A DNA stretch of 17,365 nt from Candidatus Symbiothrix sp. (GTDB lineage: Bacteria > Bacteroidota > Bacteroidia > Bacteroidales > Azobacteroidaceae): the NCBI GenBank assembly GCA_031270525.1, contig JAISXN010000217.1, positions 1-17,365 on the forward strand, read 5' to 3'. Position numbers and translations under genes: made by a program. Positions 1,132 to 16,672 of the stretch are shown here, in pieces (the stretch's first letter is position 1; each line of letters opens with the position of its first letter). A model generated the notes under the pieces. The model did no database searches and was not told the DNA's origin. It saw only the letters and a list, made by a program, of their open reading frames with translations.

Positions 1132-1170
1132 CTTTTAATTCGTAATTTTTAATTTTTAATTGAATATACT

Positions 1171-3177
1171 ATGCAACAGGAAGATGATTTAAGAGGACTG
1201 GCCAAAGTCATGGAGTTCATGCGGGCTGTCAGTATTTTGTTTTGTGTTATCAATATTTACTGGTTTTGTTACCAGAGTATTGTGGATTGGGGGATTAATA
1301 TCGGCGTAGTCGATAAAATCCTGATGAATTTTCAGCGGACTACCGGACTGTTTACGTCCGTTTTGTGGACTAAACTGTTCGCCGTTGTGTTTTTAGCGCT
1401 GTCGTGCCTGGGAACGAAAGGCGTCAAGCAGGAAAAGATTAAATGGTTGAAAATAAACGCATGTCTGTTTTTCGGCTTTGTCCTGTTTTTCCTGAACTGG
1501 TGGCTACTGTATCTGCCGCTTCCACTGGTGGCAAACACGGCTTTTTATGTGTTCACGCTCACTTTGGGTTACATTCTTTTGTTGGTCGCCGGATTGTGGA
1601 TGAGCCGCCTGCTAAAGAATGGTTTGCTCGACGATGTTTTCAATATTGAAAATGAATCGTTTATGCAGGAAACACGGCTTATCGAAAACGAATATTCAGT
1701 CAATCTGCCTACACGTTTTTTCTACAAAAAGAAGTGGAACAAAGGTTGGATAAACGTTGTCAATCCATTCCGCGCAAGTATTGTATTAGGCACACCGGGG
1801 TCAGGAAAGTCATACGCAATCGTAAATAATTACATTAAACAGCAGATTATCAAAGGATTCTCGATGTATGTGTATGATTACAAGTTTGATGATTTGTCCG
1901 TAATTGCTTACAATACAATGCTCAAAAATATGGATAAATACAAAGTGAAGCCGAAGTTTTATGTAATCAATTTCGACAATCCCCGCAAGTCGCACCGCTG
2001 CAATCCCATTGTGCCGGAATTTATGACAGATATTTCAGATGCTTATGAATCAGCCTATACCATTATGCTCAATCTCAATAAAACGTGGATTCAAAAGCAG
2101 GGTGATTTTTTCGTGGAATCACCCATAATCCTTTTAGCAGCAATAATTTGGTATTTAAAAATCTATCAAGAGGGTAAGTATTGTACCTTTCCCCATGCCA
2201 TCGAATTTTTGAACCGTAAATATGCCGATATTTTCCCGATTCTTACTTCTTATCCACAGTTGGAGAACTACTTATCCCCCTTTATGGATGCGTGGGAAGG
2301 AGGCGCTCAAGAGCAGCTTCAGGGGCAGATTGCTTCGGCTAAAATCCCGTTATCCAGAATGATAAGCCCTCAACTCTATTGGGTAATGACCGGAAACGAT
2401 TTTACACTTGACATCAACAATCCCAATGAGCCGAAGATTCTTTGCGTGGGCAACAATCCCGACCGTCAAAACATTTATTCGGCGGCTTTAGGCTTGTATA
2501 ACAGCCGTATCGTGAAGCTCATAAACAAAAAGGGACAACTCAAAAGCAGTGTGATTATCGACGAGTTACCAACTATTTATTTCAGAGGACTTGATAACCT
2601 GATAGCCACCGCCCGAAGCAACAAGGTTGCAGTCTGTCTTGGTTTTCAGGACTTTTCGCAGTTGAAACGGGATTATGGCGACAAAGAGGCCGCCGTAGTG
2701 ATGAACACGGTGGGGAATATTTTTTCCGGTCAGGTCGTGGGCGAATCGGCAAAAAACCTGTCCGAGCGTTTCGGAAAAGTGTTGCAAAAGCGGCAGTCGA
2801 TGACGATTAACAGGCAGGATACATCCACATCTATTTCTACGCAGTTGGATTCGCTTATTCCGGCATCCAAAATCAGCAATCTTACGCAGGGTATGTTTGT
2901 AGGTGCAGTGTCCGACAACTTCGACGAGCGGATAGAACAGAAGATTTTCCATGCCGAGATTGTTGTCGATAACGAGGCAGTTGCCAGTGAAACGAAAGCC
3001 TACAAGAAAATCCCTGTCATTGCCGAGTTTACGGACGATGCAGGAAACGACATGATGCAACAGGTTATCGAACACAACTACAACCAAATCAAAGCAGACG
3101 TGAAACAGATTGTCGCCGATGAACTGGCTCGAATAGAAAGCGACCCGGAATTGCAGCATTTGATAAAGAAAGAATGA
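1171..3177 (+). CDS. mobC: MobC, TraG/VirD4-like type IV coupling protein
   Basis: This 668-residue inner-membrane ATPase hands the relaxase-DNA complex to the mating channel. The N-terminal 145 residues contain four hydrophobic spans (about 17-37, 62-80, 97-117, 121-143). The cytosolic motor has a Walker A motif GTPGSGKS (207-214) and a Walker B VIIDELP (461-467). Further conserved stretches are EQLQGQIASAKIPLSRMISPQ and VVGESAKNLSERFGK, characteristic of Bacteroidetes MobC proteins. The length matches that family. The start at 1171 is preceded by an A+T-rich leader with no Shine-Dalgarno sequence, normal for Bacteroidetes. It lies 39 nt behind mobB and is probably cotranscribed with it; a strong hairpin (3191-3237) follows 13 nt after the stop. 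No damage is seen. Confidence 0.95.
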   Translation: MQQEDDLRGLAKVMEFMRAVSILFCVINIYWFCYQSIVDWGINIGVVDKILMNFQRTTGLFTSVLWTKLFAVVFLALSCLGTKGVKQEKIKWLKINACLFFGFVLFFLNWWLLYLPLPLVANTAFYVFTLTLGYILLLVAGLWMSRLLKNGLLDDVFNIENESFMQETRLIENEYSVNLPTRFFYKKKWNKGWINVVNPFRASIVLGTPGSGKSYAIVNNYIKQQIIKGFSMYVYDYKFDDLSVIAYNTMLKNMDKYKVKPKFYVINFDNPRKSHRCNPIVPEFMTDISDAYESAYTIMLNLNKTWIQKQGDFFVESPIILLAAIIWYLKIYQEGKYCTFPHAIEFLNRKYADIFPILTSYPQLENYLSPFMDAWEGGAQEQLQGQIASAKIPLSRMISPQLYWVMTGNDFTLDINNPNEPKILCVGNNPDRQNIYSAALGLYNSRIVKLINKKGQLKSSVIIDELPTIYFRGLDNLIATARSNKVAVCLGFQDFSQLKRDYGDKEAAVVMNTVGNIFSGQVVGESAKNLSERFGKVLQKRQSMTINRQDTSTSISTQLDSLIPASKISNLTQGMFVGAVSDNFDERIEQKIFHAEIVVDNEAVASETKAYKKIPVIAEFTDDAGNDMMQQVIEHNYNQIKADVKQIVADELARIESDPELQHLIKKE

Positions 3178-3190
3178 TATTTTTAAGTAA

Positions 3191-3243
3191 CAGGCACGGA
3201 TACAACAGACCAATAAATCAATGTTTATCCGTGCCTGCTTTTA
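3191..3243 (+). terminator. Terminator-like hairpin after mobC
   Basis: Two perfect 12-base arms, CAGGCACGGATA (3191-3202) and TATCCGTGCCTG (3226-3237), are separated by 23 nt and followed by CTTTTA. The position 13 nt past the mobC stop fits termination or attenuation of the mob operon. The U-tract is short, so termination may be partial. Confidence 0.7.
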
Positions 3244-3249
3244 CCATAG

Positions 3250-3285
3250 CGCCAACCCCTGCCAAACAAACGCCAACCCTTGCCA
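3250..3285 (+). repeat. Two 15-bp direct repeats upstream of the DUF3945 gene promoter
   Basis: CGCCAACCCCTGCCA (3250-3264) and CGCCAACCCTTGCCA (3271-3285) differ at one base and are spaced 21 bp start to start, about two helical turns. They end 38 bp before the putative -7 element. This arrangement suits a dimeric regulator or an accessory protein site, but no binding protein can be named from the sequence. Confidence 0.6.
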
Positions 3286-3300
3286 CCTGCCTGAAAATCC

Positions 3301-3331
3301 TTTATTTTCAATATTTACCCATCTACTTTTG
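3301..3331 (+). promoter_or_regulatory. Bacteroides-type promoter for the DUF3945 gene
   Basis: TACTTTTG at 3324-3331 matches the Bacteroides -7 consensus TAnnTTTG exactly. A TTTA at 3301-3304 lies 19 bp upstream at the -33 position (consensus TTTG, so one mismatch). Transcription would start around 3338-3340, about 35 nt before the chosen ATG at 3375, just after the mobC terminator hairpin. This supports an independent transcript for the DUF3945 gene and topB. Confidence 0.55.
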
Positions 3332-3374
3332 TACTGCATTAACAGTGATGCAATCATTTAAAATTAAAAGCAGC

Positions 3375-4796
3375 ATGAATGAAAAATTGAAAGACCAAGA
3401 CATTCTTTTGGTCAAGGAAAAAGGTAGCAACGAATTGAGCGTTGCTAAAATGGGCAAGGACGGTAAGGTCAAGCAAGCCAAACCCGACAGTGAAAACCCC
3501 GATTTTTTGAAAATTGACAAACAGGGGAACGTTCTCGAAAACTTCTTTGAAAACTTCAAGCGGCAGGTCAAAGACCCGACACGCTTTGAGTTTTTCCGCG
3601 TTCCGGCAGAGAAGTTTAAGGAAGTCGTGCAGAAATTGCAGAATGCTTTCAAAAACCCAAACAAACCTGAGAACAAGGCGTTTATCGATCTTCATCGCAT
3701 TAACCCGGAAGATTTCCTGAAAAAACAGGGACAAACCCAACCACAGGCGCAGACCCAAACCCAAACACCTGAAAACAGTTATGCCATCAATCCCGACAGT
3801 ATCCATTGGGACAAACTGGAAAAATTCGGCATTACACGCGAATCCCTCGAAAAAACAGGCAACCTCGAAAAAATGCTCGATTACCGCAAAACGGATTTGA
3901 TGCCGGTTTCCATCCGGATAGACGACGAAACGACGCTTCGTACCGACGCCCGCTTTTCGCTTCGCCGGCAGGAAGATGGTACATTTGTTCCTGCCGTTCA
4001 TCCCATCCGGCACAAACCCGATTTGGAACGTCCGTACTTCGGCGTAACATTTTCCGAAGAAGACAGGAAGAACCTGCTGACAAACGGTAATCTTGGCCGG
4101 GTGGTCAATGCCGAATTTCGTCCGGGTGAAAAAATGCCCATCCTGTTGTCGCTGGACAGACTGACCAATGAACTTGTCGCTTTCCGTGCAGACCGGTTAA
4201 CTGTTCCAGAGAAAATCAAGGGTGTGGAACTGGGCGAACAGCAAAGAAAAGAACTCTCGGAAGGCAAAGCCGTACATCTTGATAATATGATAAGCAAAAA
4301 CGGCAAAGAATTTTCCGCATCCATCCAGTTCAATGCCGACAAACGGAGTTTTGAATTTCTGTTCGACAACGACCGGAAGCAAAGCCAAACGCAGGAAAAC
4401 GGGCAATCAAATGTTCAAAAAACCTTTCGTGGAAAGGAACTGACCGAAAACCAGCGCGACAGCCTGCTGGAAGGCAAAACCGTTCATGTGGACGGCTTGG
4501 TAGATAAAAAAGGAAAAGGGTACAGCGGCTATATCACGCTGAACAAAGACACCGGAAAAACCGATTTCATGTTTTCCAAGCAGTACAAAGAGGCATTAGA
4601 AAAAGGTCTGGTCATTCCCGACAACCGCAGCAAAACGCAGGTCGCCGTCAATTCGGAAGGCAAAACCAGCGAAGCGACCAAAAACGTGAAAGAGCCTCTG
4701 AAACAGGGACAAACGCAACCCACCGAAAAGCAGGTGGAAAAGCAGGAGAAACAGGAAAAGAAAACTGCAAAAAAAGCCAAAGGCGTAAAAATGTAA
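3375..4796 (+). CDS. DUF4099/DUF3945-type conjugative element protein
   Basis: This 473-residue protein is of a kind regularly found next to topB in Bacteroidetes conjugative elements; its biochemical role is unknown. The ATG at 3375 is preferred because MNEKLKDQDILLV matches the usual family beginning and sits just below a promoter. In-frame ATGs at 3174 (inside the end of mobC, through the terminator) and 3348 are less likely. Visible parts are: an N-terminal region (about 1-115); a Gln/Thr-rich linker (about 118-133); a segment with WDKLEKFGITRESLEK (about 145-160) typical of DUF4099; then two DUF3945 repeats (about 283-330 and 352-400), each with the pattern GxELxExQRxxLxEGKxVHxD. A Lys/Gln/Glu-rich tail (about 440-473) ends in AKKAKGVKM. 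There is no signal peptide or membrane segment, so it is cytosolic. topB begins 27 nt later. Confidence 0.88.
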   Translation: MNEKLKDQDILLVKEKGSNELSVAKMGKDGKVKQAKPDSENPDFLKIDKQGNVLENFFENFKRQVKDPTRFEFFRVPAEKFKEVVQKLQNAFKNPNKPENKAFIDLHRINPEDFLKKQGQTQPQAQTQTQTPENSYAINPDSIHWDKLEKFGITRESLEKTGNLEKMLDYRKTDLMPVSIRIDDETTLRTDARFSLRRQEDGTFVPAVHPIRHKPDLERPYFGVTFSEEDRKNLLTNGNLGRVVNAEFRPGEKMPILLSLDRLTNELVAFRADRLTVPEKIKGVELGEQQRKELSEGKAVHLDNMISKNGKEFSASIQFNADKRSFEFLFDNDRKQSQTQENGQSNVQKTFRGKELTENQRDSLLEGKTVHVDGLVDKKGKGYSGYITLNKDTGKTDFMFSKQYKEALEKGLVIPDNRSKTQVAVNSEGKTSEATKNVKEPLKQGQTQPTEKQVEKQEKQEKKTAKKAKGVKM

Positions 4797-4823
4797 TGAT
4801 TCATCACTAAAATCCATAAAGAA

Positions 4824-6917
4824 ATGAAAATTTGTATATTGAGTGAAAAGCCCTCTGTGGCAAGGGAAATCGCAAACGTGGTCGGAGCCTCACATAAAGA
4901 AGACGGATTTTTACACGGTAACGGTTACATGGTTACTTGGGCGTTCGGCCATCTGGTACAGTTGGCCATGCCCGAAGAATACGGCTTCACGGGATTTGTC
5001 AGGGAGAACCTCCCGATAATTCCCGAAGTGTTTAAACTCGTTCCCCGGCAAGTAAAAGAGGGCAAAGAATATAAAGCCGACGCGAGCGCATTGAAGCAAC
5101 TCAAAATCATCAAACACGCATTCGACAGTTGCGACCGCATCATTGTAGCTACTGACAGTGGACGCGAAGGATGTTTAATTTTCCGGTATATCTATTCACA
5201 TCTGAACTGCCACAAGCCATTTGACAGGCTTTGGATAAGCAGTTTAACAGAAAAATCCATTAAAGACGGCCTGCAAAACCTCAAACCGGGCAGCGATTAT
5301 GACAACCTGTATTTTGCGGCAAAAGCGCGTTCAGAGGCTGATTGGCTATGTGGAATTAATTCAAGTCAGTCGTTGAGTATCGCGGCGGGGCGGGGTGTGT
5401 TTTCACTCGGACGGGTGCAAACACCCACGCTTGCAATGATTTGTAAACGGTTTTTGGAAAACAGACACTTTGTTTCTACTCCGTTTTGGCAAATCCGGAT
5501 TCAGACGGACAAAACAGGCGTTTCATTTGCCGCAATCAGTCGCGAAAAATACGATAATAAGGATGCGGCAAACAAGGTTTTCTCTCTTTTGCAGCAACAA
5601 AAAACGCTTCATGTTCAGTCTGTTGAAAAGAAAGAAGTCCATCAAGAGCCGCCATTACTGTACTGTTTAACGACACTGCAAAAAGAGGCAAACAGCAAGC
5701 ACGGCTTTTCGGCGGACAAAACACTTTCCATAGCGCAAAAGTTGTATGAATCGAAGTTTATCACTTATCCTCGCACGGGCAGCCGTTATATTTCCGCAGA
5801 CGTATTCGATGAAATACCGGAACTGCTTAACAGTCTGAAAACGCACCCGCGTTTCGGCAGTTATGCCGAATCAATGGACAGCGCCGTTTTGAACATTCGC
5901 TGTGTCAATAATGAAAAAATCACCGACCATCATGCACTTTTGATTACGGAAAACACGCCCAACGGTCTATCCGGCGATGAACAGACCGTTTACGAAATGA
6001 TAGCGGGACGCATGTTGGAGGCGTTTTCAAAAAAGTGCGTCAAAGATGCCACGACCATTTTGTTGGCAAACGGCGACACGGTTTTTGATGCGAAAGGCTC
6101 AATTATCAAACAAGCTGGCTGGCGAACAGTTTTCGGCGAACAGGAAGAAACAGGAGAAGACGAAACAGGCAATTTGCCCGAAGTAATCAAAGGCGAAACG
6201 CTTCCGGTTATCCAATCCGAATTGCTGGAAAAGCAGACCAAGCCCAAGCCGTTACACACGGAAGCCACGCTTTTAGGAGCAATGGAATCGGCAGGAAAAG
6301 AAGTTGAAAACGAAGCCGAGCGCGAAGCCATGAAAGAATCCGGTATCGGAACGCCCGCCACCCGCGCAGCAATCATAGAAACGCTGTTTTCGCGCGACTA
6401 TATACGCCGTGAAAAGAAATCGTTACTGCCGACCGAAAAAGGTCTTCTGGTTTACGAAACTGTTAAAAGTAAGCGTATTGCGGATGTAGCCATGACAGGA
6501 AACTGGGAAAACGCCCTTGCACAAATCGAACGCGGTGAAATGCAGCCGGAAACGTTCAGTAAGGCTATCGAAGTCTATACGAGGCAAATTACAACAGAGT
6601 TGCTGGAAACAAAAATCGTCGTTGCAAATGAAAATACCTGCCTTTGTCCGAAATGCAAAAGCGCACAAGTACGATTCTATCCCAAAGTAGCCAAATGCAC
6701 GGATGCAAATTGTGGACTGGTTATTTTCCGAAATATCAGCGAAAAACAGTTGTCCGACGGACAGATTACGGACTTGCTGACCAAAGGTAAAACCGGAGTA
6801 ATCAAAGGCTTCAAAAGCAAGGCGGGAAAAACGTTTAACGCCGAATTGAAATTAAATGAGAATTATCGGGTTACGTATGATTTTCCAGATAAGTTAGCGG
6901 GGAAAGGGAAAAAGTAG
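4824..6917 (+). CDS. topB: DNA topoisomerase III (type IA), mobile-element TopB
   Basis: This 697-residue type IA topoisomerase relaxes or decatenates DNA by single-strand passage, presumably during excision or transfer of the element. The N-terminal TOPRIM domain begins ILSEKPSVAREIA (residues 4-16) and carries ATDSGREG with D111 and E115. Position 113 is G where cellular TopA has the second Asp. The catalytic tyrosine is Y315 in FITYPRTGSRY. A conserved GIGTPATRAAIIETL helix (about 510-524) follows, then a C-terminal four-cysteine zinc-ribbon-like cluster (C608/C611 and C625/C630, with C606 adjacent). A last segment after residue 650 (TGVIKGFKSKAGKTFNA) recalls the DUF3945-type repeat of the upstream protein. 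The length is normal for the family. C116 follows E115 where I would expect Glu. It is cotranscribed with the upstream gene, and hairpins start 8 nt past the stop. Confidence 0.96.
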   Translation: MKICILSEKPSVAREIANVVGASHKEDGFLHGNGYMVTWAFGHLVQLAMPEEYGFTGFVRENLPIIPEVFKLVPRQVKEGKEYKADASALKQLKIIKHAFDSCDRIIVATDSGREGCLIFRYIYSHLNCHKPFDRLWISSLTEKSIKDGLQNLKPGSDYDNLYFAAKARSEADWLCGINSSQSLSIAAGRGVFSLGRVQTPTLAMICKRFLENRHFVSTPFWQIRIQTDKTGVSFAAISREKYDNKDAANKVFSLLQQQKTLHVQSVEKKEVHQEPPLLYCLTTLQKEANSKHGFSADKTLSIAQKLYESKFITYPRTGSRYISADVFDEIPELLNSLKTHPRFGSYAESMDSAVLNIRCVNNEKITDHHALLITENTPNGLSGDEQTVYEMIAGRMLEAFSKKCVKDATTILLANGDTVFDAKGSIIKQAGWRTVFGEQEETGEDETGNLPEVIKGETLPVIQSELLEKQTKPKPLHTEATLLGAMESAGKEVENEAEREAMKESGIGTPATRAAIIETLFSRDYIRREKKSLLPTEKGLLVYETVKSKRIADVAMTGNWENALAQIERGEMQPETFSKAIEVYTRQITTELLETKIVVANENTCLCPKCKSAQVRFYPKVAKCTDANCGLVIFRNISEKQLSDGQITDLLTKGKTGVIKGFKSKAGKTFNAELKLNENYRVTYDFPDKLAGKGKK

Positions 6918-7015: not shown

Positions 7016-7594
7016 TTATAACGGAATTACCGGGATACCCATTGGTGTGAAAACAGTGCCATCAATCTCCTGATATATTTGAGGAATGTTTGTAATGTTA
7101 TTTTCGTCTCCGGTAATATCCAAATACAGTATTTTGTTTTGAGTAAGCGCTTTTAGAACATTTGGGGTTGCACCATTAAACAGTATCCATCTTACTTCAT
7201 TTATTTTTTTATGTTCCAAAAGCCATTTGTCTTTTTGAATTTGTTCTCTCACAAATCTATTATATACAACATTATACGACTTAATTTCATAACCGACAAG
7301 TAATTCTTTTATGAAAATGTCATAACGCCTTTTGCAGGTATTTTCTTCAAAACAATAAAACCATTCTTTATCAATCAGTATTGTAAGTTTTGATATGTCT
7401 AATTTTTCTTTTAATGAATCTACAATCAAAGCAGTTGCTATCTTTTCATAGCTCTTACCTTTGGCTTTATTTATACCAATCTGCATTTCCTGCCAAAAAC
7501 TTTCCGGCAGTATGCCAAGAGCAGGATTGTTTCCAGATAGCGGATATTTTATTGTGCCGGTTTTTTTCATTTTCTTATTTTTGCATTTGTTCAT
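7016..7594 (-). CDS. Small putative PD-(D/E)xK nuclease-like protein next to the NLR
   Basis: This 192-residue protein has no family I can name with confidence. A PD-(D/E)xK-like core can be read in it: a Glu in a helix (E50, GKSYEKIATALIVD), then D92 in RRYDIFI, eleven residues on a strand with E103-I-K105 (VGYEIKSYNVV), and a following helix with REQIQKDKWLL (Q118, D122). This order is seen in restriction-endonuclease-like enzymes and some toxin nucleases; nuclease activity is an inference. There is no signal peptide or membrane span. The ATG at 7594 overlaps the end of the TPR reading frame by 20 nt, suggesting translational coupling. An alternative ATG at 7570 would start just behind the TPR stop. 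It is the last gene of the minus-strand block, and the IS upstream may reduce its transcription. Base composition is AT-rich like the NLR, so they probably arrived together. Confidence 0.7.
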   Translation of the reverse strand: MNKCKNKKMKKTGTIKYPLSGNNPALGILPESFWQEMQIGINKAKGKSYEKIATALIVDSLKEKLDISKLTILIDKEWFYCFEENTCKRRYDIFIKELLVGYEIKSYNVVYNRFVREQIQKDKWLLEHKKINEVRWILFNGATPNVLKALTQNKILYLDITGDENNITNIPQIYQEIDGTVFTPMGIPVIPL

Positions 7595-8252
7595 TTAGCC
7601 ATTCTGATAATAATATAGAAGAATCACTTTTCTTATAAATAACTTCCAACATATTATACGCTTTTTTTGAATTTTCATCATTTAAGTGCAAGAAAATATT
7701 ATAGGATACCCAAAAATAATGCAATGCTTTTTTATAATTATTTTGTTTGTAATAAATTCCCGCAATATCGTAATAAATGGTAGCAGTATTTGTGTTATTA
7801 ATTCCAAGTTCTTTTTCGACAATGGATAAAGATTTTTTCAAAAAATCCAATGCGCCTTCAAGATTATTTTGTTTAAAATAAATACTAATTATTTTGTTAT
7901 AAACAGCAAATACTCTATTTATTCCAAGTGTTTCTTTAAAGATTCGTAAAGATCTTTGGAACATTTTCAATGCTTCCAAATACTTACCTTGATTATCATA
8001 AACTAATCCTATCCCATAATACAATTCCGCTATCTTAGGATGCTTTATTCCGAGTACCGTTTTATGGATTAGCAAACAATTTTTGTAAATCACCAAAGAT
8101 TTTAAATAATCACCCTGATTTCTATAAATCTCTGCAATATTATAATAAGTTGTCATCGCATTGAGATGATTGATTCCGATAGTTTTCTTGTATATTTCTA
8201 TTGCTTTTGAGTATATTTTCAATGCTTTAGAGTAGTTTATATCATGAAAAAC

Positions 8253-8406
8253 CAATCCGATATTGTTATATGTTTGAGCTATGTCCGGATGCTCATCGCC
8301 AAGTATTTTTTTTCTGACTTGTAAAGATTTTTGAAGATATTCCAATCCTTTTTGATTGTTACCTTGAAAAATATAAATCAATCCAATATTGTTATAAGTT
8401 TGAGCT
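8253..8406 (-). repeat. DNA-level repeats within the TPR coding region
   Basis: The 28-base stretches at 8253-8280 and 8379-8406 (both containing ATATTGTTATA and GTTTGAGCT) differ at two positions and lie 126 bp apart, exactly 42 codons or one TPR unit. They encode the repeated AQTYNNIGL. A third, weaker copy lies at about 8505-8520, where the IS inserted. Nucleotide identity this high suggests recent duplication of a TPR unit or gene conversion. Confidence 0.6.
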
Positions 8407-8517
8407 GTACCTAAATCTTCAATACCAACTACCTTTTCTCGAATTAATGCTTTTTGATAAAATTCTATTGCTTTTGCGTAGTCAGCTTGATTATAGTAAA
8501 CAAATCCAATATTATTA

Positions 8518-8522
8518 TAAAT
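8518..8522. repeat. Target-site duplication TAAAT, left copy
   Basis: TAAAT at 8518-8522 abuts the left IS end and is repeated at 9826-9830 at the right end. A 4-bp reading (TAAA) is also possible if the IS begins with the T at 8522, but the 5-bp reading gives symmetric 12-bp ends. Confidence 0.8.
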
Positions 8523-8534
8523 GAGAGCTTTGCA
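8523..8534 (+). repeat. IS left terminal inverted repeat
   Basis: GAGAGCTTTGCA is the exact reverse complement of 9814-9825. Matching stops after 12 bases, where the left continues CGGAAA and the right, inverted, AAACGC. Confidence 0.88.
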
Positions 8535-8601
8535 CGGAAAATGTTCATAAATTCGGCTATATCTTTTTGGTTCCAAGATTATTATTTCGCATCTTAGTGG
8601 C

Positions 8602-9681
8602 ATGAAACATGTAAAACAGACATCCATGCAACCAAGTTTTTCTTCCTACGATGTAGAGCGTCGCTCTGCCAAGACTTCCACGTTTTATAACCAGCTTAAC
8701 ACACTTGTTAAATGGAACCAAATTGAGAGAGTGATCAACCGATATTATAAGAAAGGAGAGACCCTTTGTGGGGCTAAACCCTACAGCGGGCTACTGCTAT
8801 TCAAGATGCTCCTGATCGGAATATGGAACGATCTCTCTGATGTTCAGGTCGAAATGCATGTTAACGATACGCTTTCCGCCATGCTTTTTTGCGGTATGTC
8901 TTTAGAAGATAGAGTTCCGGATCACAGTACCCTGAGCCGTTTCCGTAGCGAATTGACAACCAATGGCGGGATGGACAAACTCCTGTCGGCCTTTAATAAG
9001 GAACTTTCCAAAAATCACCTGATTGTGCATCACGGAGTAAAGGTAGACGCCAGCCTCACGGAGAGTCCCCGCAAACCCAAGGGTAAGATTACCTACGAGA
9101 TAGCCGAAGATCGCGATGAAGATAAGGTGTCTGAAGAAGAAAAAAACAAACAAATCACTTGTCTGAAGAAGCAAGAAGGGAAAGGGGTAGACTCGGAGGG
9201 ACGCTGGTTGAAGAAAGGAAAACGGAGTGTTTTCGGTTTCAAACACCACGATGCGGTGGATGAAAACGGCATGATCCTCGGGGTGCATACCACGACTGCT
9301 AATGAGCATGATTCTAAAGGCTTATCCCCGCTCTTAGACAAGCTTGCGGGAGAAGACCTCAAAGGTGGAGTGTTTGCTGATAAGGGCTACAAGGTCCCGG
9401 AGAATGACGGCTTGCTTAAAGAGAAAAAGGTCAAAAATCGTCTGATGCATAAAGCTTACCGGAACCGTCCGTTAACTCGTTGGCAAGTGGTCTCCAATAA
9501 ATTGGTCAGTAAAACCCGCTGGGTAGTGGAACGAACTTTCGGTAGTATCAAAAAATGGTTCGGCGGAGGGAAAGCCCGTTATATCGGCCTGCGAAAAACC
9601 CATACCCAGCATGTTTTACAAGCTATTGCCTATAATCTGAAACGCTCCCCTGGGATACTTATGTCCAATTCTCTCAAATAG
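8602..9681 (+). CDS. IS5-family DDE transposase
   Basis: This 359-residue transposase cuts and joins the IS ends. The N-terminal DUF772-type region (about 55-145) includes LLFKMLLIGIWNDLSD and PDHSTLSRFR. The catalytic residues appear as D149 (KVDASL), D260 (FADKGY) and E310 in RWVVERTFGSIKKWF, the usual IS5 arrangement. An acidic/lysine-rich insert lies at 168-195. The closing HVLQAIAYNLKRSPG is typical of the group. Length is normal and no frameshift is seen, so it may be active. The ATG at 8602 is used; an in-frame ATG at 8626 (MQPSFSSYDVERRS) is a good alternative. The 67 bases between the left repeat and the start are too short to hold more than the promoter. Confidence 0.95.
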   Translation: MKHVKQTSMQPSFSSYDVERRSAKTSTFYNQLNTLVKWNQIERVINRYYKKGETLCGAKPYSGLLLFKMLLIGIWNDLSDVQVEMHVNDTLSAMLFCGMSLEDRVPDHSTLSRFRSELTTNGGMDKLLSAFNKELSKNHLIVHHGVKVDASLTESPRKPKGKITYEIAEDRDEDKVSEEEKNKQITCLKKQEGKGVDSEGRWLKKGKRSVFGFKHHDAVDENGMILGVHTTTANEHDSKGLSPLLDKLAGEDLKGGVFADKGYKVPENDGLLKEKKVKNRLMHKAYRNRPLTRWQVVSNKLVSKTRWVVERTFGSIKKWFGGGKARYIGLRKTHTQHVLQAIAYNLKRSPGILMSNSLK

Positions 9682-9682
9682 G

Positions 9683-9756
9683 AGGAAAAAGCGTTAGGGA
9701 AACGGCTCATCAACCGCTGATTTACCTTTATTAACGAGTAAAAACGACTTTTTCCT
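9683..9756 (+). terminator. Imperfect inverted repeat behind the transposase gene
   Basis: AGGAAAAAGCGTT (9683-9695) and AACGACTTTTTCCT (9743-9756) pair over 13 bp with one bulged base, starting right after the transposase stop. A small inner CGG/CCG stem is possible in the loop. The right arm contains five Ts but no U-run follows. It could end the transposase transcript or block outside transcription. Confidence 0.4.
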
Positions 9757-9813
9757 TCGAAAACACGAACGAGGATAACTATAGAACAGGAAAAGCATGG
9801 GGCGAGTGCGTTT

Positions 9814-9825
9814 TGCAAAGCTCTC
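9814..9825 (-). repeat. IS right terminal inverted repeat
   Basis: TGCAAAGCTCTC is the perfect 12-base inverse of the left end at 8523-8534. Confidence 0.88.
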
Positions 9826-11969
9826 TAAATAGTAAATATATAGGGATGTTCAGCACCAAACACTGTCTCTATGATTATTAATACCTCTTGGTATAATTCC
9901 AATGCTTTTGGATAATTTGCTAATTCATTAAATCCGTATCCCAAAAAAAATTTCAGATTGACTGTATCAGCTGTTTCATGTGGCATTTTATCTGTTACAG
10001 AAAGAATGTGCAGAATTAGTTCTTGGAACAAAGCTTTGGATTTGGCAGTTGAAAAATCAAAATATATTTGTTTATTCATTATCTGTATACAAACAATCAA
10101 TTTCTCCTGTTTATTATTGAGTGCTTTTCTAACCACATCTTGCAACAACCGATGCATACTAATTCTTTCTTCACTGTCAATTCTGACCAATGAATATGCT
10201 TTCAGTTCTTTTTTGATCTCTGCGAAATCATTTAATCCATTTTTCCGTAATTCATCCGACAAAACATCTACTGCATCAACAAACCATTGACTATGAATAC
10301 TGTCAGGTGCAAAGAACGCGCAAAGATTTAATAATTCTTTGGCTGCTTTACTTTTAATTCGTTGCATCGAAATATTCCAAGTTGCGCCAACCGATTCGGT
10401 ATGAGATAAATGTTTTTTTTCTAAAATTGAAATTGTATCTTTTTCTAATAATTCATAATACCCTTTGTATGATTCATTTTCCTCCTTAATATAAGCGGCT
10501 GCCTGTTCCAATGCAAGTGGAAGCCCACCAAGGCGGTCGGCTATTTTATCTGCATAGTCATCAGGTGTTTTATTTGTATGCGATTCTAAGAACTCTCGCG
10601 ATTCCTCTATTTCAAATACATCTATTGGAATAGTTTGAATGTTCGAAAACTCGTCTTTATTTCGGGAAGAAATTAAAATGTGGCGTTTTCCTCTAAGTGT
10701 TTTGTCAAAATCAAAAAACGCTTTAATATCGTCACAGTGTTCGACATTATCAAGTAAAAACAACCAATCTTCATTTTCTTTCATCCATTTTTTGAACACG
10801 TAATAAATGTAATTATAGTCTTTTTCAGTCTCTATAATCAATTTGTTTTTTAACGCAAACTGGAAAATCTCCTCTCTTACATTATCGGCTGAAATTGCAT
10901 TAAACCAAATAATGTGTTTGTATGCTTTTTGTTTGCGATTAGCGTATTCACTCAAAACTCTTGTTTTTCCTACTCCGCCAAAACCTGTAATTACATGAGC
11001 TGACCATCCATCATCATGCAAGTGGTTTGCTATCTTTCCTAAAACGCTTTCTTTTCGTTCCACAAATGGGGAAGTGTATTGTGGAATGCCGAATAATTGA
11101 TTTTCATATCTTGCAAGAAGTTCATCAAGAATTATTTTTACGGATTCATATTTACCCGATTCAAACAGTATCGGATATATGTTTCTTTCTTCAAGTTCCT
11201 CTCTTCTTGTGGAAATCTGGTCTTCTGTGCAGTCTAAAATAGCAAAATGATAGGTTCCGCTATTTTGTAACTTTTCCCATACATCCATAGAATAATCTTT
11301 TGTATCTCCTTTTGTATTAGTAACACCAAGACTGCTGCCAAGAAACAGGAAGTGAAAACCTTGAAAAAACACAGATAAGGATTTCATAAGTTCTGAGTAC
11401 GGGCTATACACTTTATCATATACGGATTTGGTAAAAACAACATTTTGTGCATCGGATACACAACCGTGGATTTTATAGATAAGTCGTTTCCTGTTATCTA
11501 CGGCTTGCCCAAGTTCTTTCGAATTATATGGAAAAACAGCAGGAAGTTTATTATCATGTATATTTTCAATAATTTGGTCAAAATTGGTAGTGATAATCGG
11601 TCCGTAAAACAATTTTGGAACAATAGAAATGGCTTGGGTTTCAGCTTTTTTCAAAACATTTTCCCATTCGGCGTCATTCAGGTTGCCTCCAAAAGTGATG
11701 CGGACATTTTCGTAAAAGATATCTTTCCCTTGTTCTTGTTCAATTAAATCGGCGGCAACAATATTATTCATACTATCCGGTTTTTTCGTATGAAAACAAT
11801 TTTCATACTCGTCATTAATGAATTTATTCCATGTTTTAAACCCGGCAAACACAGACATTCCGGCTCCAATATACGGCACAATCAGCTTGTTTATGCACAA
11901 ACCGGATAATTCCTCAAAAACTTTTTTGTTTTCGGGTGAATAATTAATTATGTCGTCGAATGTTGTCAT
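9825..11969 (-). pseudogene. SIR2-NB-ARC part of an NLR-like (STAND) defence protein, truncated by the IS
   Basis: This 714-residue piece holds all but the TPR end of a roughly 1028-residue protein. Residues about 25-290 are a SIR2-like domain: YIGAGMS (33-39), TTNFD (127-131), KIHG (166-169), FLGSSLG (209-215). Such domains in defence proteins usually destroy NAD+ once triggered. An NB-ARC ATPase follows: Walker A GFGGVGKT (329-336), Walker B LFLLDNVE (403-410), GLPLAL (482-487) and an MHD-like SMHRLL (604-609). From about 670 the first TPR starts (NYPKALELYQEVL). The frame ends at a TAG whose final G comes from the IS. This resembles SIR2-STAND (Avs-like) antiphage proteins, where NTP-driven oligomerisation activates the effector. 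Without most of the TPR sensor it is probably inactive, or misregulated if expressed. It starts 34 nt after gajB, with no SD and no clear promoter between. Confidence 0.9.
9826..9830. repeat. Target-site duplication TAAAT, right copy
   Basis: This is the second copy of the 5-bp duplication at 8518-8522. It codes part of the final Ile and the TA of the artificial TAG stop in the interrupted gene. Confidence 0.8.
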
Positions 11970-12003: not shown

Positions 12004-13716
12004 TTAGTAAGGTCTTCCTCTTTTTGTCGTTCTACCTTGTTCCGAAATCAAATGCAAATGTTTTTTTGCCCTTGAACAAATGACATAGAGCAATTTACGA
12101 GATGCATTTACTGGGTCAGGGTCATTCCAATGTGGGACTAATCCATATAATAATCCAAAGGCAATAACGGTATGAAACTCTTCGCCTTTGATGCCATGAC
12201 AAGTATTTACAACAACTCCTGCATGTTGTCTGAATAATCGCTTGAAACTATTAATGTCTTTGGCATAATCAAACTCCGGTTTTTCCAATCGCTTTTTTGT
12301 TCCTTCAAAAAAATATTCCCAATGTTGTTTTAATAAAGGATATCTTTCAAGTGATATATCTAAAGTTTGAAGTAATTGCTGAAAACATTCTTCTAAATAG
12401 GTAAGTCCATCCTCTTGTTTTGAAGATATGGAATTAATAGTGCGCAATAAGAATTTTGACTTTTTTTCAACATTATTCAAAATGTGAATTTCCATTGTAT
12501 CAAGTTCATTGATTAATTCCACCGCCCATTTATTTCTCACAAAATACATTGTCGGAGAAGGTTCTACCAGAAAAAGACGTGCAATTTTATACCAAATATT
12601 TTCTTTGTTTTTTAAAAGCGGAGATAGTCCGTAAGCATCAAAATTAACGTTGGGAAGCAATGTCTTAAGTTTTCTTCCCATGGGAATAACAAGATACCAC
12701 TGCGGGGCTAAAACACAAATTTCATGTTCAGGTATTCCTGTATTAATATTTTCATCAATAATTGATGCAATATGGTCTGCCAGATTATCTTTGTCAATAA
12801 TAGTATTATATGTGATTTTCCCATATTCGTCAGCAAAACCGCATAGAGATTGTATATCTATGTTCGTTGTTTGATAATTTCGATAATAATCTATTATTCT
12901 TTGGCAACTGCGATAATTTCCTGATAATTCTCTTTCTTCAATTTCAATATTTCCAAATGATTCTTTAATTTCCTCTAACGATTTTGCTACGCCTCCCAAT
13001 GTACCGTATATTGCTTGGTCTTTATCTCCTACAAGAAATAGCAATGTTTTCCCATTATTTGCTGTAATGATTTGAGAAAGAATGGCATATTGCAATTCAT
13101 TCGTATCCTGATATTCATCTACACAAATGATATGGAAGAGATTATTTAATGTTTTGCCTATTTTAGGGTAAGTATGAATGAGTTTATAAGCGTAATAAAG
13201 AATTTGGTCAAAGTCTATTAATCCCTCATCTTTTAATATTTGATGATAATCATTGAGTAATGCTTGATGCTCCAAATCAAAAAAAGAGCCATTCGTGTCT
13301 AATCTTGTTGGAATATTTTCCCACCATTTATATCCGTAATCCTCTTTTAATGAAGATATTAATTCTTCTGTTTTATATTCATCGGCAATCACAAAACCAT
13401 TTTTCAATTCATCTAAATATGCCACATAAGGACGAAGAATCCATTCCAGACAAAAAGCATGAATTGTTCCCTCCCACAACCGTGTAGGGTCAATATCCAT
13501 ATGAACTATTCTCCGTTTAATTTCATCTGCTGCCCTATTTGTAAAAGTTAAAGCAATAACCCATTTCTTTGAATCGTCCAATCTTTGTAATTCATGTGCA
13601 ATTTTATGGGTTAATACCCTTGTTTTCCCACTTCCCGGACAAGCTGTTAATAGAACATGGCCTTCCGCAAGTACTGCCTCTTTCTGTTGTTCATTCAAGC
13701 CTTTTAAGATGTCCAT
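12004..13716 (-). CDS. gajB: GajB-like UvrD/Rep-family helicase of a Gabija-type system
   Basis: This 570-residue superfamily 1A helicase or DNA-end sensor shows all the motifs: Q motif LNEQQKEAV (7-15), Walker A ACPGSGKT (25-32), Ia ALTFTNRAADEI (55-66), GTIHAFC (83-89), Walker B VDEYQDT (199-205), III GDKDQAIYG (230-238), IV LSGNYRS (264-270), V NTCHGIKGEEF (504-514) and VI RKLLYVICSRAKKHL (541-555). It follows the OLD nuclease gene by 5 nt, the order gajA-gajB of Gabija. In Gabija, GajB is known to assemble with GajA and sense DNA termini or released nucleotides during phage infection. It is somewhat longer than the roughly 500 residues I recall for characterised GajB. The ATG at 13716 fits the Q-motif position. 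A housekeeping UvrD is unlikely, given the short length and the partner. Confidence 0.88.
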   Translation of the reverse strand: MDILKGLNEQQKEAVLAEGHVLLTACPGSGKTRVLTHKIAHELQRLDDSKKWVIALTFTNRAADEIKRRIVHMDIDPTRLWEGTIHAFCLEWILRPYVAYLDELKNGFVIADEYKTEELISSLKEDYGYKWWENIPTRLDTNGSFFDLEHQALLNDYHQILKDEGLIDFDQILYYAYKLIHTYPKIGKTLNNLFHIICVDEYQDTNELQYAILSQIITANNGKTLLFLVGDKDQAIYGTLGGVAKSLEEIKESFGNIEIEERELSGNYRSCQRIIDYYRNYQTTNIDIQSLCGFADEYGKITYNTIIDKDNLADHIASIIDENINTGIPEHEICVLAPQWYLVIPMGRKLKTLLPNVNFDAYGLSPLLKNKENIWYKIARLFLVEPSPTMYFVRNKWAVELINELDTMEIHILNNVEKKSKFLLRTINSISSKQEDGLTYLEECFQQLLQTLDISLERYPLLKQHWEYFFEGTKKRLEKPEFDYAKDINSFKRLFRQHAGVVVNTCHGIKGEEFHTVIAFGLLYGLVPHWNDPDPVNASRKLLYVICSRAKKHLHLISEQGRTTKRGRPY

Positions 13717-13721
13717 CTGAT

Positions 13722-15866
13722 TTAACCTATTAATCGGTTTATTTCTACAGCATTTATAAATTTCGTCAATTGGTCATTAGGTAAATTGTCTTTATATATA
13801 TTTATCCTGTCTTCTATTTTTTCAGATTCCGATGCTGCTTGAAGCAAAGAATTATAATCAATGCTATATCCTTCATAAGCCATTTCTATTAAAGCTTTTA
13901 AGCGATATTTAGCCATTTCAAACAAAACTTTGTCGGAAATATGTTGACTTGTGTGTGCAATGGCATTGATAATGTAATCTGGAATAAAAGTCAAATGGTT
14001 TATGTGTTCTGAAAGCATAATAGCAAACCATCCTTTCCCGAATTTTTCATCTGCAAGCCTTAATATCTCCTTCCCTGATATAGCAATATCTTCATTTTTA
14101 AATTTATCTGAAATATCATCTATTCTTTTTTGTTGTTTATATTGATTTTCTACAAGAGAAATTACTTCATTAGAATTACCTGCTAATAGGAAATCTACTT
14201 CAAAAGTATAGTCTGCATAAAACACATCTAACCAAATATTTCCTTTGCAAAACGTATCTAATCTGTTCTTCCTATCAATACCTGATTTTTGAGAATTTCT
14301 ACAACCTCGTTGTTCGTTAGTATCGTTATTTTCATCTGCCGGCAATGGTAAGATTGACGTATCCAAATCAGTAATGATAGCACACTTTTTTCTTATCCTT
14401 TTGTCGTGGAAAAGCACAGCAACGTTTTCAAATCCGGTACTGCCAATATTTACAAGGCTAATTCCCAACTCATCCAATGTTACTCCAAAGACTTTTTTCA
14501 CCAATTCAGGGATTAAAATTTGTTCTGCGTCACCTTCGACCAACAAAACACCTTTTGCAAAAAGAAGATTTGTTCTGATTGCGTCCAAATAACGTTCTAA
14601 AGCTGTAACCGTACCCAAACCATTTGATGGATTAAAAACTACGGCATGTTTATCTGCCCTGCTTAAAATATTCATTGAACTTATTTTGCTTACTGATGAA
14701 ATATGCGTTGAATGCGTTGTAATGAATATCTGTGTATTGCGACTGTTTAGTTTCTGGAAAATCGTTTTTTGAATATGAGTATGAACATGTGCTTCCGGTT
14801 CTTCTATCAATAGAAAATTAGCAATTTTATCTACTGATTTTACCTTTTCATATTCTAAAAGTTTAAGTGATAAATAAATAAGATTTGCTCCGCCTAAACT
14901 TAGTTCCCATATACGACCATTGTAACCGATTTCATCAGGGTCGCCCACCCATAACTTTAGGGACTGTAAAAGCCGTTCCATATCGGAGGGAAGTTCGGAT
15001 TTAATATCAATGTTAGGCGCATAAGTTTCCCCAACAGCCTGTTTGATACTGTCCGTAATTCCATGTGAAATATCCTGAACTTCCCTTAGATTGCTGATTT
15101 CTTCATTCAAAGAATTAACTGTATTCTCTATACTTTGCTTTTGAGCGATGTCAATACTCTTTTCTTTTCCACGTAATAAATTAAGCAACGGATTATCTTT
15201 ATAGGAACGCAAATCGGCTTCCACATCACGCAAGGCTTTTACAAAGGTACATGACAATTCATCAAAAAAAGAAAAACCAAACGGTTTTGTACCATAGACA
15301 TCTTCTTGTAATTCATCTGGGTCTGGAAAAACGATATTATCAAAATCACCGACATATTCTTTGTAATTATCATCCAACGAAAAATCAACATTTCCTCTAC
15401 CTCTAAATATTCGTTCGTAATCGTTGAGTTCTATGGAATTAAGAATTTCCTGCAATCCTTCTTTCGTCTTATTTTCCTGTTGAGAGTAATCATAGAGTTC
15501 TTTTCGTTTAGCATCTCTTGGTCTGAATATTAAGGCATAGCTTCCTTTGGTACTGTCGTATTCATTCATGTTTCCAATCTTATGCATTGTCATGGCTTGG
15601 GCTTCTTCACTTGTGCTTAGTTCTTCAAATTCAACTTGAATGATTATCCAATGACCGCTCCAAGAAGTTAAAGTTCTATTAAAATCCGATTCATAAAGCC
15701 TGACATTTCGAGGAAGACTATCATCTATTAATAAACGTAAAGCATATAGTAGATTCGTTTTTCCAGAGCCATTTTCACCAATGATGGTATTAACTCCTTT
15801 TTGGAACGCCAATGAAACATTTCGGAAGTTTCTGTAATTTCTGATTGATAATTTTGATATGTACAT
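13722..15866 (-). CDS. gajA: GajA-like OLD-family ATPase-TOPRIM nuclease of a Gabija-type system
   Basis: This 714-residue protein starts with an ABC/SMC-like ATPase: Walker A GENGSGKT (30-37), signature LSLGG (322-326), Walker B FLLIEEPEAH (351-360) and switch ITTHSTH (382-388). The long insert at 80-320, partly helical (240-280), is the usual dimerisation part. A TOPRIM nuclease follows, with E444 (LLVEGDAEQIL), D500/D502 (ITDLDTS) and E556 (YTFEVDFLL). In Gabija, GajA is a sequence-specific nickase that is held off by nucleotides and works in a complex with GajB. At 714 residues it is longer than the roughly 580 of the characterised GajA; the surplus is mainly in the ATPase insert and a C-terminal helical tail after about 600. 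It starts 19 nt behind abiEii with no promoter seen in the gap. Other OLD nucleases act alone; the adjoining helicase makes this the class 2 (Gabija) type. Confidence 0.88.
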   Translation of the reverse strand: MYISKLSIRNYRNFRNVSLAFQKGVNTIIGENGSGKTNLLYALRLLIDDSLPRNVRLYESDFNRTLTSWSGHWIIIQVEFEELSTSEEAQAMTMHKIGNMNEYDSTKGSYALIFRPRDAKRKELYDYSQQENKTKEGLQEILNSIELNDYERIFRGRGNVDFSLDDNYKEYVGDFDNIVFPDPDELQEDVYGTKPFGFSFFDELSCTFVKALRDVEADLRSYKDNPLLNLLRGKEKSIDIAQKQSIENTVNSLNEEISNLREVQDISHGITDSIKQAVGETYAPNIDIKSELPSDMERLLQSLKLWVGDPDEIGYNGRIWELSLGGANLIYLSLKLLEYEKVKSVDKIANFLLIEEPEAHVHTHIQKTIFQKLNSRNTQIFITTHSTHISSVSKISSMNILSRADKHAVVFNPSNGLGTVTALERYLDAIRTNLLFAKGVLLVEGDAEQILIPELVKKVFGVTLDELGISLVNIGSTGFENVAVLFHDKRIRKKCAIITDLDTSILPLPADENNDTNEQRGCRNSQKSGIDRKNRLDTFCKGNIWLDVFYADYTFEVDFLLAGNSNEVISLVENQYKQQKRIDDISDKFKNEDIAISGKEILRLADEKFGKGWFAIMLSEHINHLTFIPDYIINAIAHTSQHISDKVLFEMAKYRLKALIEMAYEGYSIDYNSLLQAASESEKIEDRINIYKDNLPNDQLTKFINAVEINRLIG

Positions 15867-15885: not shown

Positions 15886-16467
15886 TTATATTTTTTCTAC
15901 TAATTCATTTCTTACCACTTCCCAAGCCGCTTCATTATCATACTCTACCCCTCGCATCAAAACCAACCGAATATCTTCCATAAAATCCCTGTCCGTCAGT
16001 TTCTCGTTCATATTAGCAAGAAACTGCTTCTGTGTAGGAGGTTTATCTACGGCATGTTCCATGTGAATTTTATAACACCGGATAACTTTTTCAGTATCAA
16101 TATCCGAGTGAGTCAATGCCCAATACAGGTCGAATAAATCGCGCCCTTTCTTGCGTTGGTACAAGGCTTTCAGTTTCGTTCCCAACAGTTCCTCTATTTC
16201 ATATCCGCTAATATGGCATTGCCCCGAAAACCAGGCATTTTTCACTGTGTACGGAATCTCCTTTAATCCAAATATATTAAGATGTTCACGGGTATTTATT
16301 TCAATTTTCAAACGCATCGGAACAACCGGCTGCATTTCGGAATCGAAACGATAAATAACTGTATTGTTGTGGATATGTTGTTTTACGATGCGCTTTGTTC
16401 CTAAAAAAGATAATTTTTCATGCATCCGCTTCAGTATCGGATTGATGGGTTCAGAGTTAATTTGCAC
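15886..16467 (-). pseudogene. abiEii: AbiEii toxin, C-terminal part (after frameshift)
   Basis: This is the rest of a type IV toxin of the nucleotidyltransferase fold. Family sequence actually begins before the ATG at 16467: the same frame reads upstream as RYSEDIDLVQIN, carrying the catalytic DxD motif (near 16490-16480). Further conserved elements are LKIEINTRE (a third acidic/strand element) and GTKLKALYQRKKGRDLFDLY (about residues 95-114), typical of AbiEii. It ends at 15886, 19 nt before gajA. The two halves overlap in different frames near 16510-16530. Alone this part lacks the GGT motif that binds the nucleotide, so toxin activity should be lost. Confidence 0.85.
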
Positions 16468-16480
16468 CAGGTCAATGTCT

Positions 16481-16672
16481 TCACTGTAACGGATTTGTGG
16501 CGTCAGATAGAGTTTGGGCTGTACCGCCCCGAAATGACAACGATTTTTTCAGTAAATCATCCGAGTACATCTCAACAATAGCCCGTGCTATCACTAAATC
16601 CTGTTCAACCTGTGCATCTGTTGTCCACGGCGCTACGGCTCGCCATTCCTCTATATATCGTTGCGGTATCAT
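16481..16672 (-). pseudogene. abiEii: AbiEii toxin, N-terminal part (ends at frameshift)
   Basis: The start MIPQRYIEEWRAVAPW is the characteristic AbiEii beginning. The ATG (16672-16670) shares four bases (ATGA) with the stop of abiEi, as in intact abiE operons. Residues 45-52 (LSFRGGTA) are the nucleotidyltransferase GGT motif. The frame then drifts to QTLSDATNPLQ and stops at 16481. The family usually reads GGTALHKLY...RYSEDIDL. Comparing that with GCC-CAAACTCTAT here suggests about five bases were lost (remaining C of a CTGCAC-like pair of codons) near 16521-16524. The break separates the GGT motif from the DxD motif, so no active toxin is expected from a single frame. Confidence 0.85.

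What the first reader, a model, noticed from the sequence alone, without database searches (positions are those of the whole stretch)
7016..11969. Candidate two-gene system: SIR2-NB-ARC-TPR sensor with an overlapping PD-(D/E)xK-like partner
The sequence shows a small gene overlapping the end of an NLR-like gene by 20 nt in the same AT-rich block. It has a readable E50 / D92 / E103-x-K105 / Q118-D122 pattern. SIR2-STAND proteins are known as single-gene antiphage effectors with built-in NADase activity. A separate linked nuclease would be a second effector, a regulator or a self-protection factor, and I do not recognise this pairing as described. The nuclease reading rests on motif order alone.
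Basis: partly seen in the sequence, partly recalled or inferred. Interest (0 to 1): 0.78.

Follow-up and report, generated by a model that had tools for sequence, protein, structure and literature searches.

The report
NLR gene with toxin-like nuclease partner
A bacterium carries a presumed virus-sensing immune gene followed directly by a small gene for a predicted DNA- or RNA-cutting enzyme related to the killing tips of bacterial toxins; the pair seems to be kept together in some related bacteria, although the sensor copy seen here has been broken by a jumping gene.

Summary
The pairing looks real and conserved, but the NLR in this window is not intact: a 1303-bp IS5-family element (8523-9825) splits its SIR2/NB-ARC part from its TPR part. 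The 192-aa partner (7016-7594) has a PD-(D/E)xK nuclease core: AlphaFold2 pLDDT 91.4 for residues 28-163, structural matches mostly nucleases, and E50, D92, E103, K105, Q118 invariant in 21 members. No Pfam, PADLOC or NCBIfam family covers it. Distant relatives are C-terminal domains of polymorphic/CdiA-like toxins. Four of 21 relatives have a contig of exactly the length of one coding a SIR2-NLR; three of these four pairs are compatible with a shared 17-nt gene overlap, against 3 of 2495 control pairs. The evidence for a conserved operon is thus strong but indirect, and several related NLRs lack the partner. Best reading: a toxin-type nuclease captured as a separately encoded second effector of an NADase-type NLR. 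Control by the NLR, activity and phage defence are inferred. Seven paper searches listed no description of the pair.

The parts
7016..7594 (-). partner gene: 192-aa predicted PD-(D/E)xK nuclease
   Evidence: ORF; 21 homologues; fold of residues 28-163; only sub-cutoff listings in Pfam and NCBIfam and none in PADLOC
7106..7513 (-). nuclease core, residues 28-163 (helix, strands, helix, strand, helix, strand)
   Evidence: AlphaFold2 with alignment A7, pLDDT 91.4, pTM 0.81
7280..7447 (-). predicted active site: E50 (7445-7447), D92 (7319-7321), E103 (7286-7288), K105 (7280-7282)
   Evidence: invariant in 21 sequences; D92 and K105 in 20 of 20 and E103 in 18 of 20 rows of the wider set
7575..7594 (-). 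20-nt overlap of the partner's first ATG with the 3' end of the NLR gene; alternative ATG (codon 9) 4 nt after the stop
   Evidence: a 17-nt overlap is compatible in three relatives
7575..8522 (-). C-terminal TPR part of the NLR gene (listed as ORF 7575-8627, whose first codons lie inside the IS)
   Evidence: Pfam TPR families; colinear with residues 874-1202 of intact relative P0024, 42% identity
8523..9825 (+). IS5-family insertion sequence, 1303 bp, 12-bp terminal inverted repeats; transposase 8602-9681
   Evidence: NF033581 IS5 family 229.1 bits, cut-off 140; ends and target duplication; one match in the held, incomplete assembly
8518..8522 (.). target-site duplication TAAAT, first copy
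9826..9830 (.). target-site duplication TAAAT, second copy
9826..11969 (-). N-terminal part of the NLR gene: SIR2, NB-ARC, DUF7779, start of the TPRs (listed as ORF 9825-11969, 714 aa)
   Evidence: Pfam SIR2_2 4.5e-20, NB-ARC 8.9e-11, DUF7779 3.3e-13; 80.7% identical to residues 1-708 of intact relative P0024
11169..11597 (-). SIR2_2 domain match (residues 125-267)
10368..11051 (-). NB-ARC domain match (residues 307-534)

Best explanation
A two-gene defence operon. Gene 1 is an NLR-type sensor: a SIR2 NADase head, an NB-ARC switch and a fast-diverging TPR sensor tail. Gene 2, probably translationally coupled to it, is a separate PD-(D/E)xK nuclease taken from the pool of polymorphic-toxin C-terminal domains and fitted with its own N- and C-terminal extensions. 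Likely working: the TPR tail recognises a phage component, the NB-ARC part assembles, the SIR2 head depletes NAD+, and the assembled NLR also recruits or unleashes the nuclease, which cuts DNA or RNA, giving two independent ways to stop the infection. Shown by computation: both protein types, the nuclease fold, conserved catalytic residues, a toxin-domain relationship and, indirectly, a recurring operon junction. Inferred: nuclease activity, its substrate, its control by the NLR, and phage defence itself. In this window the NLR is broken by an IS, so this copy is probably a dead or damaged system.
Against: The partner is dispensable: NLR relatives in G399 and G413 lack it, and 7 of 10 SIR2-NLRs among P0024-P0042 on contigs of 10 kb or more have no homologue on a contig of the same length. 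Six of 10 small-protein relatives on contigs of 5 kb or more show no length match among the 120 NLR hits listed. The fourth same-length pair (P0026/P0014) is not compatible with an overlap. No activity, substrate or interaction was tested. Foldseek gave no PDB match at E<=0.001, and the VIA-align list also holds RNA-polymerase subunit E and chaperonin rows. Adjacency in the relatives is inferred from proteins and contig lengths, not read from DNA.
Confidence: 0.55

Rival explanations
1. The nuclease is the toxin and the NLR its keeper: the NLR binds and holds it inactive in the resting cell, and loss of the NLR's resting state frees it (guard or toxin-antitoxin logic).
For: The nuclease family is toxin-type and no other gene lies between it and the conjugation genes that could be its immunity gene. 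The overlap recurs in relatives.
Against: In this window the NLR is split by an IS while the nuclease ORF is intact with its predicted catalytic residues; losing the keeper should select against the nuclease, unless the IS also stops its expression. Related NLRs occur without the nuclease.
Confidence: 0.17
2. The partner is an independent anti-invader nuclease or a regulator (for example of NLR mRNA or of the SIR2 head) that shares the operon only for co-expression.
For: It is facultative and more conserved than the NLR. The window is a defence block with Gabija and AbiE genes, where independent systems are stacked.
Against: The junction recurs with NLRs only 50-81% identical to the window's, more than loose stacking would need.
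Confidence: 0.15
3. A passenger: a standalone toxin-domain cassette that landed behind one NLR lineage and is inherited with it, without a joint function.
For: Standalone toxin cassettes are a known feature of polymorphic-toxin loci (PMC3482391, abstract and passages). The pairing is patchy. Both genes are confined to a narrow group: at E<=1e-40 the NLR is in 2 of 393 order genomes, the window's own and one of the same genus.
Against: Catalytic residues invariant in 21 members and a recurring junction point to selection on the pair; a solitary toxin without immunity should decay.
Confidence: 0.11
4. The PD-(D/E)xK reading is wrong and the protein is a non-catalytic adaptor of similar shape.
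Against: High-confidence core, fitting topology, invariant E/D/ExK/Q and a match list made up mostly of nucleases.
Confidence: 0.04

Closest known systems
Avs5 (SIR2-STAND defence proteins)
   Same: N-terminal SIR2 NADase effector, STAND-type switch, C-terminal repeats as sensor (PMC12931631, passages seen)
   Different: The Avs5 proteins described in those passages carry an nSTAND3 domain; here the switch is NB-ARC with DUF7779, no PADLOC Avs model was listed at E<=0.01, and a separate nuclease gene follows
Avs1-Avs4 (STAND with nuclease effector)
   Same: A nuclease is used as effector by a STAND sensor (PMC12931631, passages)
   Different: There the nuclease is the effector of the system itself; here it is a second, separate protein beside a SIR2 head. 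That Avs2-4 nucleases are fused PD-(D/E)xK-type domains is recalled
MBL nuclease-protease pairs acquired by AVAST, Hachiman, Lamassu and DRT
   Same: A separately encoded nuclease repeatedly added to existing immune systems (PMC12799240, abstract and passages)
   Different: MBL-fold nuclease, typically upstream, activated by a fused trypsin-like protease; here a PD-(D/E)xK protein downstream, and no protease family among the Pfam hits of the genes scanned
Tox-REase families of polymorphic toxins, nearest by signature Tox-REase-7
   Same: G-x-x-x-E, D, E-x-K, Q order as tabulated for Tox-REase-7 (PMC3482391, passages); relatives found here sit behind haemagglutinin repeats, DUF4280 or HINT domains
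   Different: The tabulated IxD is R-Y-D here; no Pfam Tox-REase model was listed; standalone, next to an NLR, with extra N- and C-terminal stretches
CRISPR ancillary nucleases Can2/Card1/Cdn1 and restriction enzymes BsaWI/PspGI
   Same: Among the closest solved folds for the core
   Different: No sequence relation found; different architecture and context

Membership tests
PD-(D/E)xK nuclease superfamily | alpha-beta-beta-beta-alpha-beta core | tested here: met
PD-(D/E)xK nuclease superfamily | conserved D and (D/E)xK active-site residues | tested here: met
   D92, E103, K105 invariant in 21 members; in 20 wider rows D92 and K105 20 of 20, E103 18 of 20
PD-(D/E)xK nuclease superfamily | metal-dependent phosphodiesterase activity | not testable with these tools
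   needs purified protein
Polymorphic-toxin REase-like domain (superfamily level) | homology to C-terminal toxin domains | tested here: met
Polymorphic toxin (whole system) | secretion or trafficking N-terminus and linked immunity gene | tested here: not met
   192-aa solo protein with no such domain listed, and no gene after it before the conjugation genes
Tox-REase-7 | signature GxxxE, IxD, ExK, Q | tested here: not met
   GxxxE, ExK and Q present, IxD is RYD (signature from PMC3482391); no Pfam Tox-REase match listed
Bacterial NLR (effector-NB-ARC-repeats) | effector domain, NB-ARC, C-terminal repeats in one gene | tested here: met
   precomputed Pfam domains of intact relatives P0024, P0025, P0026, P0042; P0037 lists SIR2, DUF7779 and TPRs but no NB-ARC entry; in the window the gene is split by an IS
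Avs5 | SIR2 plus nSTAND3 plus repeats | tested here: not met
   NB-ARC and DUF7779 instead of nSTAND3; no PADLOC Avs hit at E<=0.01
Conserved two-gene operon | same order and junction in independent loci | tested here: inconclusive
   3 of 4 same-length pairs compatible with a 17-nt overlap, controls 3 of 2495; strong but indirect, not read from DNA
Antiphage defence system | protects against phage | not testable with these tools
   needs plaque assays

The most novel reading that the evidence does not exclude
A dual-effector NLR: one sensor with a built-in NAD+-destroying head and a second, separately encoded nuclease effector domesticated from interbacterial toxins, so that one recognition event both starves and cuts the infected cell; the nuclease is added to and lost from NLR loci as an exchangeable module.
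Probability: 0.45. Interest if true: 0.75.

Novelty: new variant of a known kind. Interest (0 to 1): 0.6.

Why it matters
Bacterial NLRs are usually described with one effector fused to the sensor (general knowledge). A conserved operon that adds a toxin-derived nuclease to an NADase NLR would show how immune sensors gain second weapons from the toxin pool, give annotators a family that now has no curated model in the libraries searched, and make a testable case of one NLR controlling a partner in trans.

Tried and rejected
Tried without result: small protein in genome contigs with A2 (nothing) and A3 (one toxin-like locus, L003), in viral contigs (nothing), in plasmids and phages (nothing). 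The NLR head in viral contigs, the wider nuclease alignment A6 and the L003 domain in viral contigs and the G589 relative in plasmids and phages also gave nothing. The 2.4e-4 hit in G051 lies in a long unrelated ORF (tricorn-like by eye) and was dropped. Of the five genomes, the G695 hit (E 0.007, 43-aa frame with stops) was dropped; the G559 hit (E 0.0088) lies in a 154-aa ORF that shows a comparable RRxD...ExK stretch but is marginal and was not used. First fold with A2 was poor (pLDDT 46.6), so the core alone was folded with a wider alignment. Sequence searches of solved structures gave only chance-level hits. PHROGs gave only marginal hits (best 0.0071). Promoter and terminator scans were at chance level. 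P0020 (119 aa, diverging first residues) was dropped from alignments A2 onwards; with it kept, E103, K105 and Q118 are still invariant and E50 and D92 nearly so. From, L038 (55 aa) and duplicates were left out of A8. Avs5 and Tox-REase-7 membership considered and not adopted. Structural families absent are not excluded.
Full report
What is there. The window is a whole 17,365-bp contig (C157) of an incomplete genome (G000, completeness 53%). On the + strand lie conjugation genes: a relaxase domain, MobC (NF041326, 1122 bits, cut-off 900) and topoisomerase III. On the - strand, in an AT-rich block, follow AbiEi, AbiEii in two ORFs, GajA and GajB (Gabija, PADLOC 2.5e-286 and 3e-230), then the SIR2-NB-ARC-TPR gene and the small gene, all running the same way.

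The NLR is broken here. Between the 714-aa ORF (9825-11969) and the 350-aa TPR ORF (7575-8627) lies an IS5-family element (NF033581, 229.1 bits, cut-off 140) at 8523-9825, 1303 bp, with 12-bp perfect inverted ends and the 5-bp duplication TAAAT. Compared separately with the intact 1209-aa relative P0024, the first piece matches residues 1-708 at 80.7% and the second residues 874-1202 at 42% (in repeats the register is uncertain), so they are the two ends of one gene. Intact copies exist in relatives.

Where the nuclease comes from. A second genome-contig scan found a Nocardioidaceae protein whose C-terminus matches the motif block (profile comparison E 8.9e-11). A search of 395 phylum genomes found, besides the window, one solitary 180-aa relative (G589; E 9.7e-9). 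From the Nocardioidaceae domain, tblastn reaches five plasmid records (three Rhizobium, two Burkholderia): three matches lie in proteins annotated as haemagglutinin-type, one in a hypothetical protein, one in no annotated gene. In the Rhizobium record fetched, the domain is the C-terminus of a haemagglutinin-repeat protein, and a 570-bp gene follows 7 bases later. In 148 genomes of one unnamed genus of the window's class, 9 carry the domain; L025, L033 and L034 have DUF4280, and L033 and L034 also a pretoxin-HINT domain, before it, with weak hits to a REase Pfam family (E 0.012 and 0.018) over the motif region. So the nuclease core belongs with C-terminal toxin domains. Most NLR-type members add an N-terminal stretch (consensus TGSIKYPLSGNNPALGIL; different in P0016-P0019) and about 30 C-terminal residues (missing in P0021 and P0022) that the toxin domains lack.

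The pair recurs. Of 21 small-protein relatives, 4 have a longest contig whose length equals exactly that of a contig coding a SIR2-NLR among the 119 other NLR hits listed (120 of 595 shown): 43614, 54787, 102743 and 5870 bp. Shifting lengths by 1-500 bases either way gives 0.11 coincidences on average and never more than 2. The length method agrees with known placements: the window (17365), G399:C7 (74142, as for P0033) and G413:C114 (14113, as for P0052). Then I asked whether one DNA could code both the NLR's last residues and the partner's first residues in overlapping frames. For 3 of the 4 same-length pairs the answer is yes, at 17 nt only (20 nt in the window); P0026/P0014 fails. Of 2495 mismatched pairs 3 pass at 14 nt or more, and two of those 3 involve NLRs that have their own passing partner, i.e. 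2 of 80 within the four partner-bearing NLRs (the second ratio is my arithmetic). This is strong but indirect evidence for a conserved overlapping junction. Identities to the window show different tempos: partners 91, 83, 81 and 77% (P0003, P0006, P0008, P0014) against NLR N-parts 80.7, 50.1, 51.7 and 65.6% and TPR parts 42, 31, 34 and 38% (P0024, P0042, P0037, P0026).

What speaks against a fixed pair. In the window's family (45 genomes) only the window's genome has the small gene. Eight of the 45 have some match to the NLR head at E<=0.001; apart from the window only G399 (57%) and G413 (48%) match over most of it, and neither has the small gene: in G399 the next gene starts 183 bases after the NLR, and no remnant was seen in the gap. 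Among the SIR2-NLRs P0024-P0042, 3 of 10 on contigs of 10 kb or more share a length with a small-protein contig. Of 10 small-protein relatives on contigs of 5 kb or more, 6 have no match among the 120 listed NLRs; their neighbours are unknown. In 393 genomes of the order only the window's and one same-genus genome have the NLR at E<=1e-40, and only the window's has the small gene (one further hit is chance). The system is narrow and patchy.

Mechanism. The SIR2 head (motifs TTNFD and IHG visible in the sequence; their catalytic meaning is recalled), NB-ARC switch and TPR tail point to NAD+ depletion on recognition, as in Avs5 (PMC12931631, passages). No immunity gene follows the nuclease, so something must restrain it: its own extensions, low expression, or the NLR. 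That the nuclease stays intact behind a broken NLR argues mildly for activation by the NLR rather than restraint by it, unless the IS blocks its expression. I therefore favour a second effector acting in trans (0.55 for the whole statement; fold about 0.95, operon about 0.9, NLR-controlled effector about 0.55-0.6).

Literature. Searches of the open-licence library (listings with titles and abstract starts) show no paper on a SIR2-NLR paired with a separate PD-(D/E)xK nuclease. The nearest precedents are in Closest known systems. In passages of PMC7159879 REase-fold domains are among the effectors of other NTP-dependent conflict systems, and passages of PMC8195603 list REase and SIR2 among exchangeable effectors, a general precedent for effector mixing. 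Most subscription papers and bioRxiv's own collection are not in that library.

Noticed in passing
12004-15866 (-): Apparently complete Gabija pair (GajA 714 aa, GajB 570 aa, near full-length to PADLOC models), 5 bp apart and 34 bp upstream of the NLR start, so possibly one transcription unit with it.
   Followed up: partly
15886-17364 (-): AbiEi/AbiEii type IV toxin-antitoxin genes; AbiEii lies in two ORFs (16481-16672 and 15886-16467) matching the start and the rest of one model, so it looks disrupted.
   Followed up: no
3-6917 (+): Relaxase domain, MobC coupling protein and topoisomerase III of a Bacteroides-type conjugative element next to the defence block.
   Followed up: no
L017 (G589:C92) 8962-9504: Solitary 180-aa relative of the nuclease in another family of the phylum; no NLR is evident among the ORFs of its 11.8-kb contig (ORFs read by eye).
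   Followed up: partly
L025, L031, L033, L034 and related loci of one unnamed genus: A toxin-domain family without a Pfam or NCBIfam match, behind DUF4280 or pretoxin-HINT domains in the three long proteins scanned; in L025 and L031 the E of ExK reads Q.
   Followed up: partly
L021 (G193:C98), L019 (G413:C114): NLR relatives that look damaged: an in-frame stop in G193 and an N-terminus in a second frame in G413, so loss of these NLRs may be frequent.
   Followed up: no
L027 (G559:C7) 1363-1827: A 154-aa ORF with an RRVD...ExK stretch that scores marginally (E 0.0088) with the nuclease profile; possibly another restriction-endonuclease-like protein.
   Followed up: no
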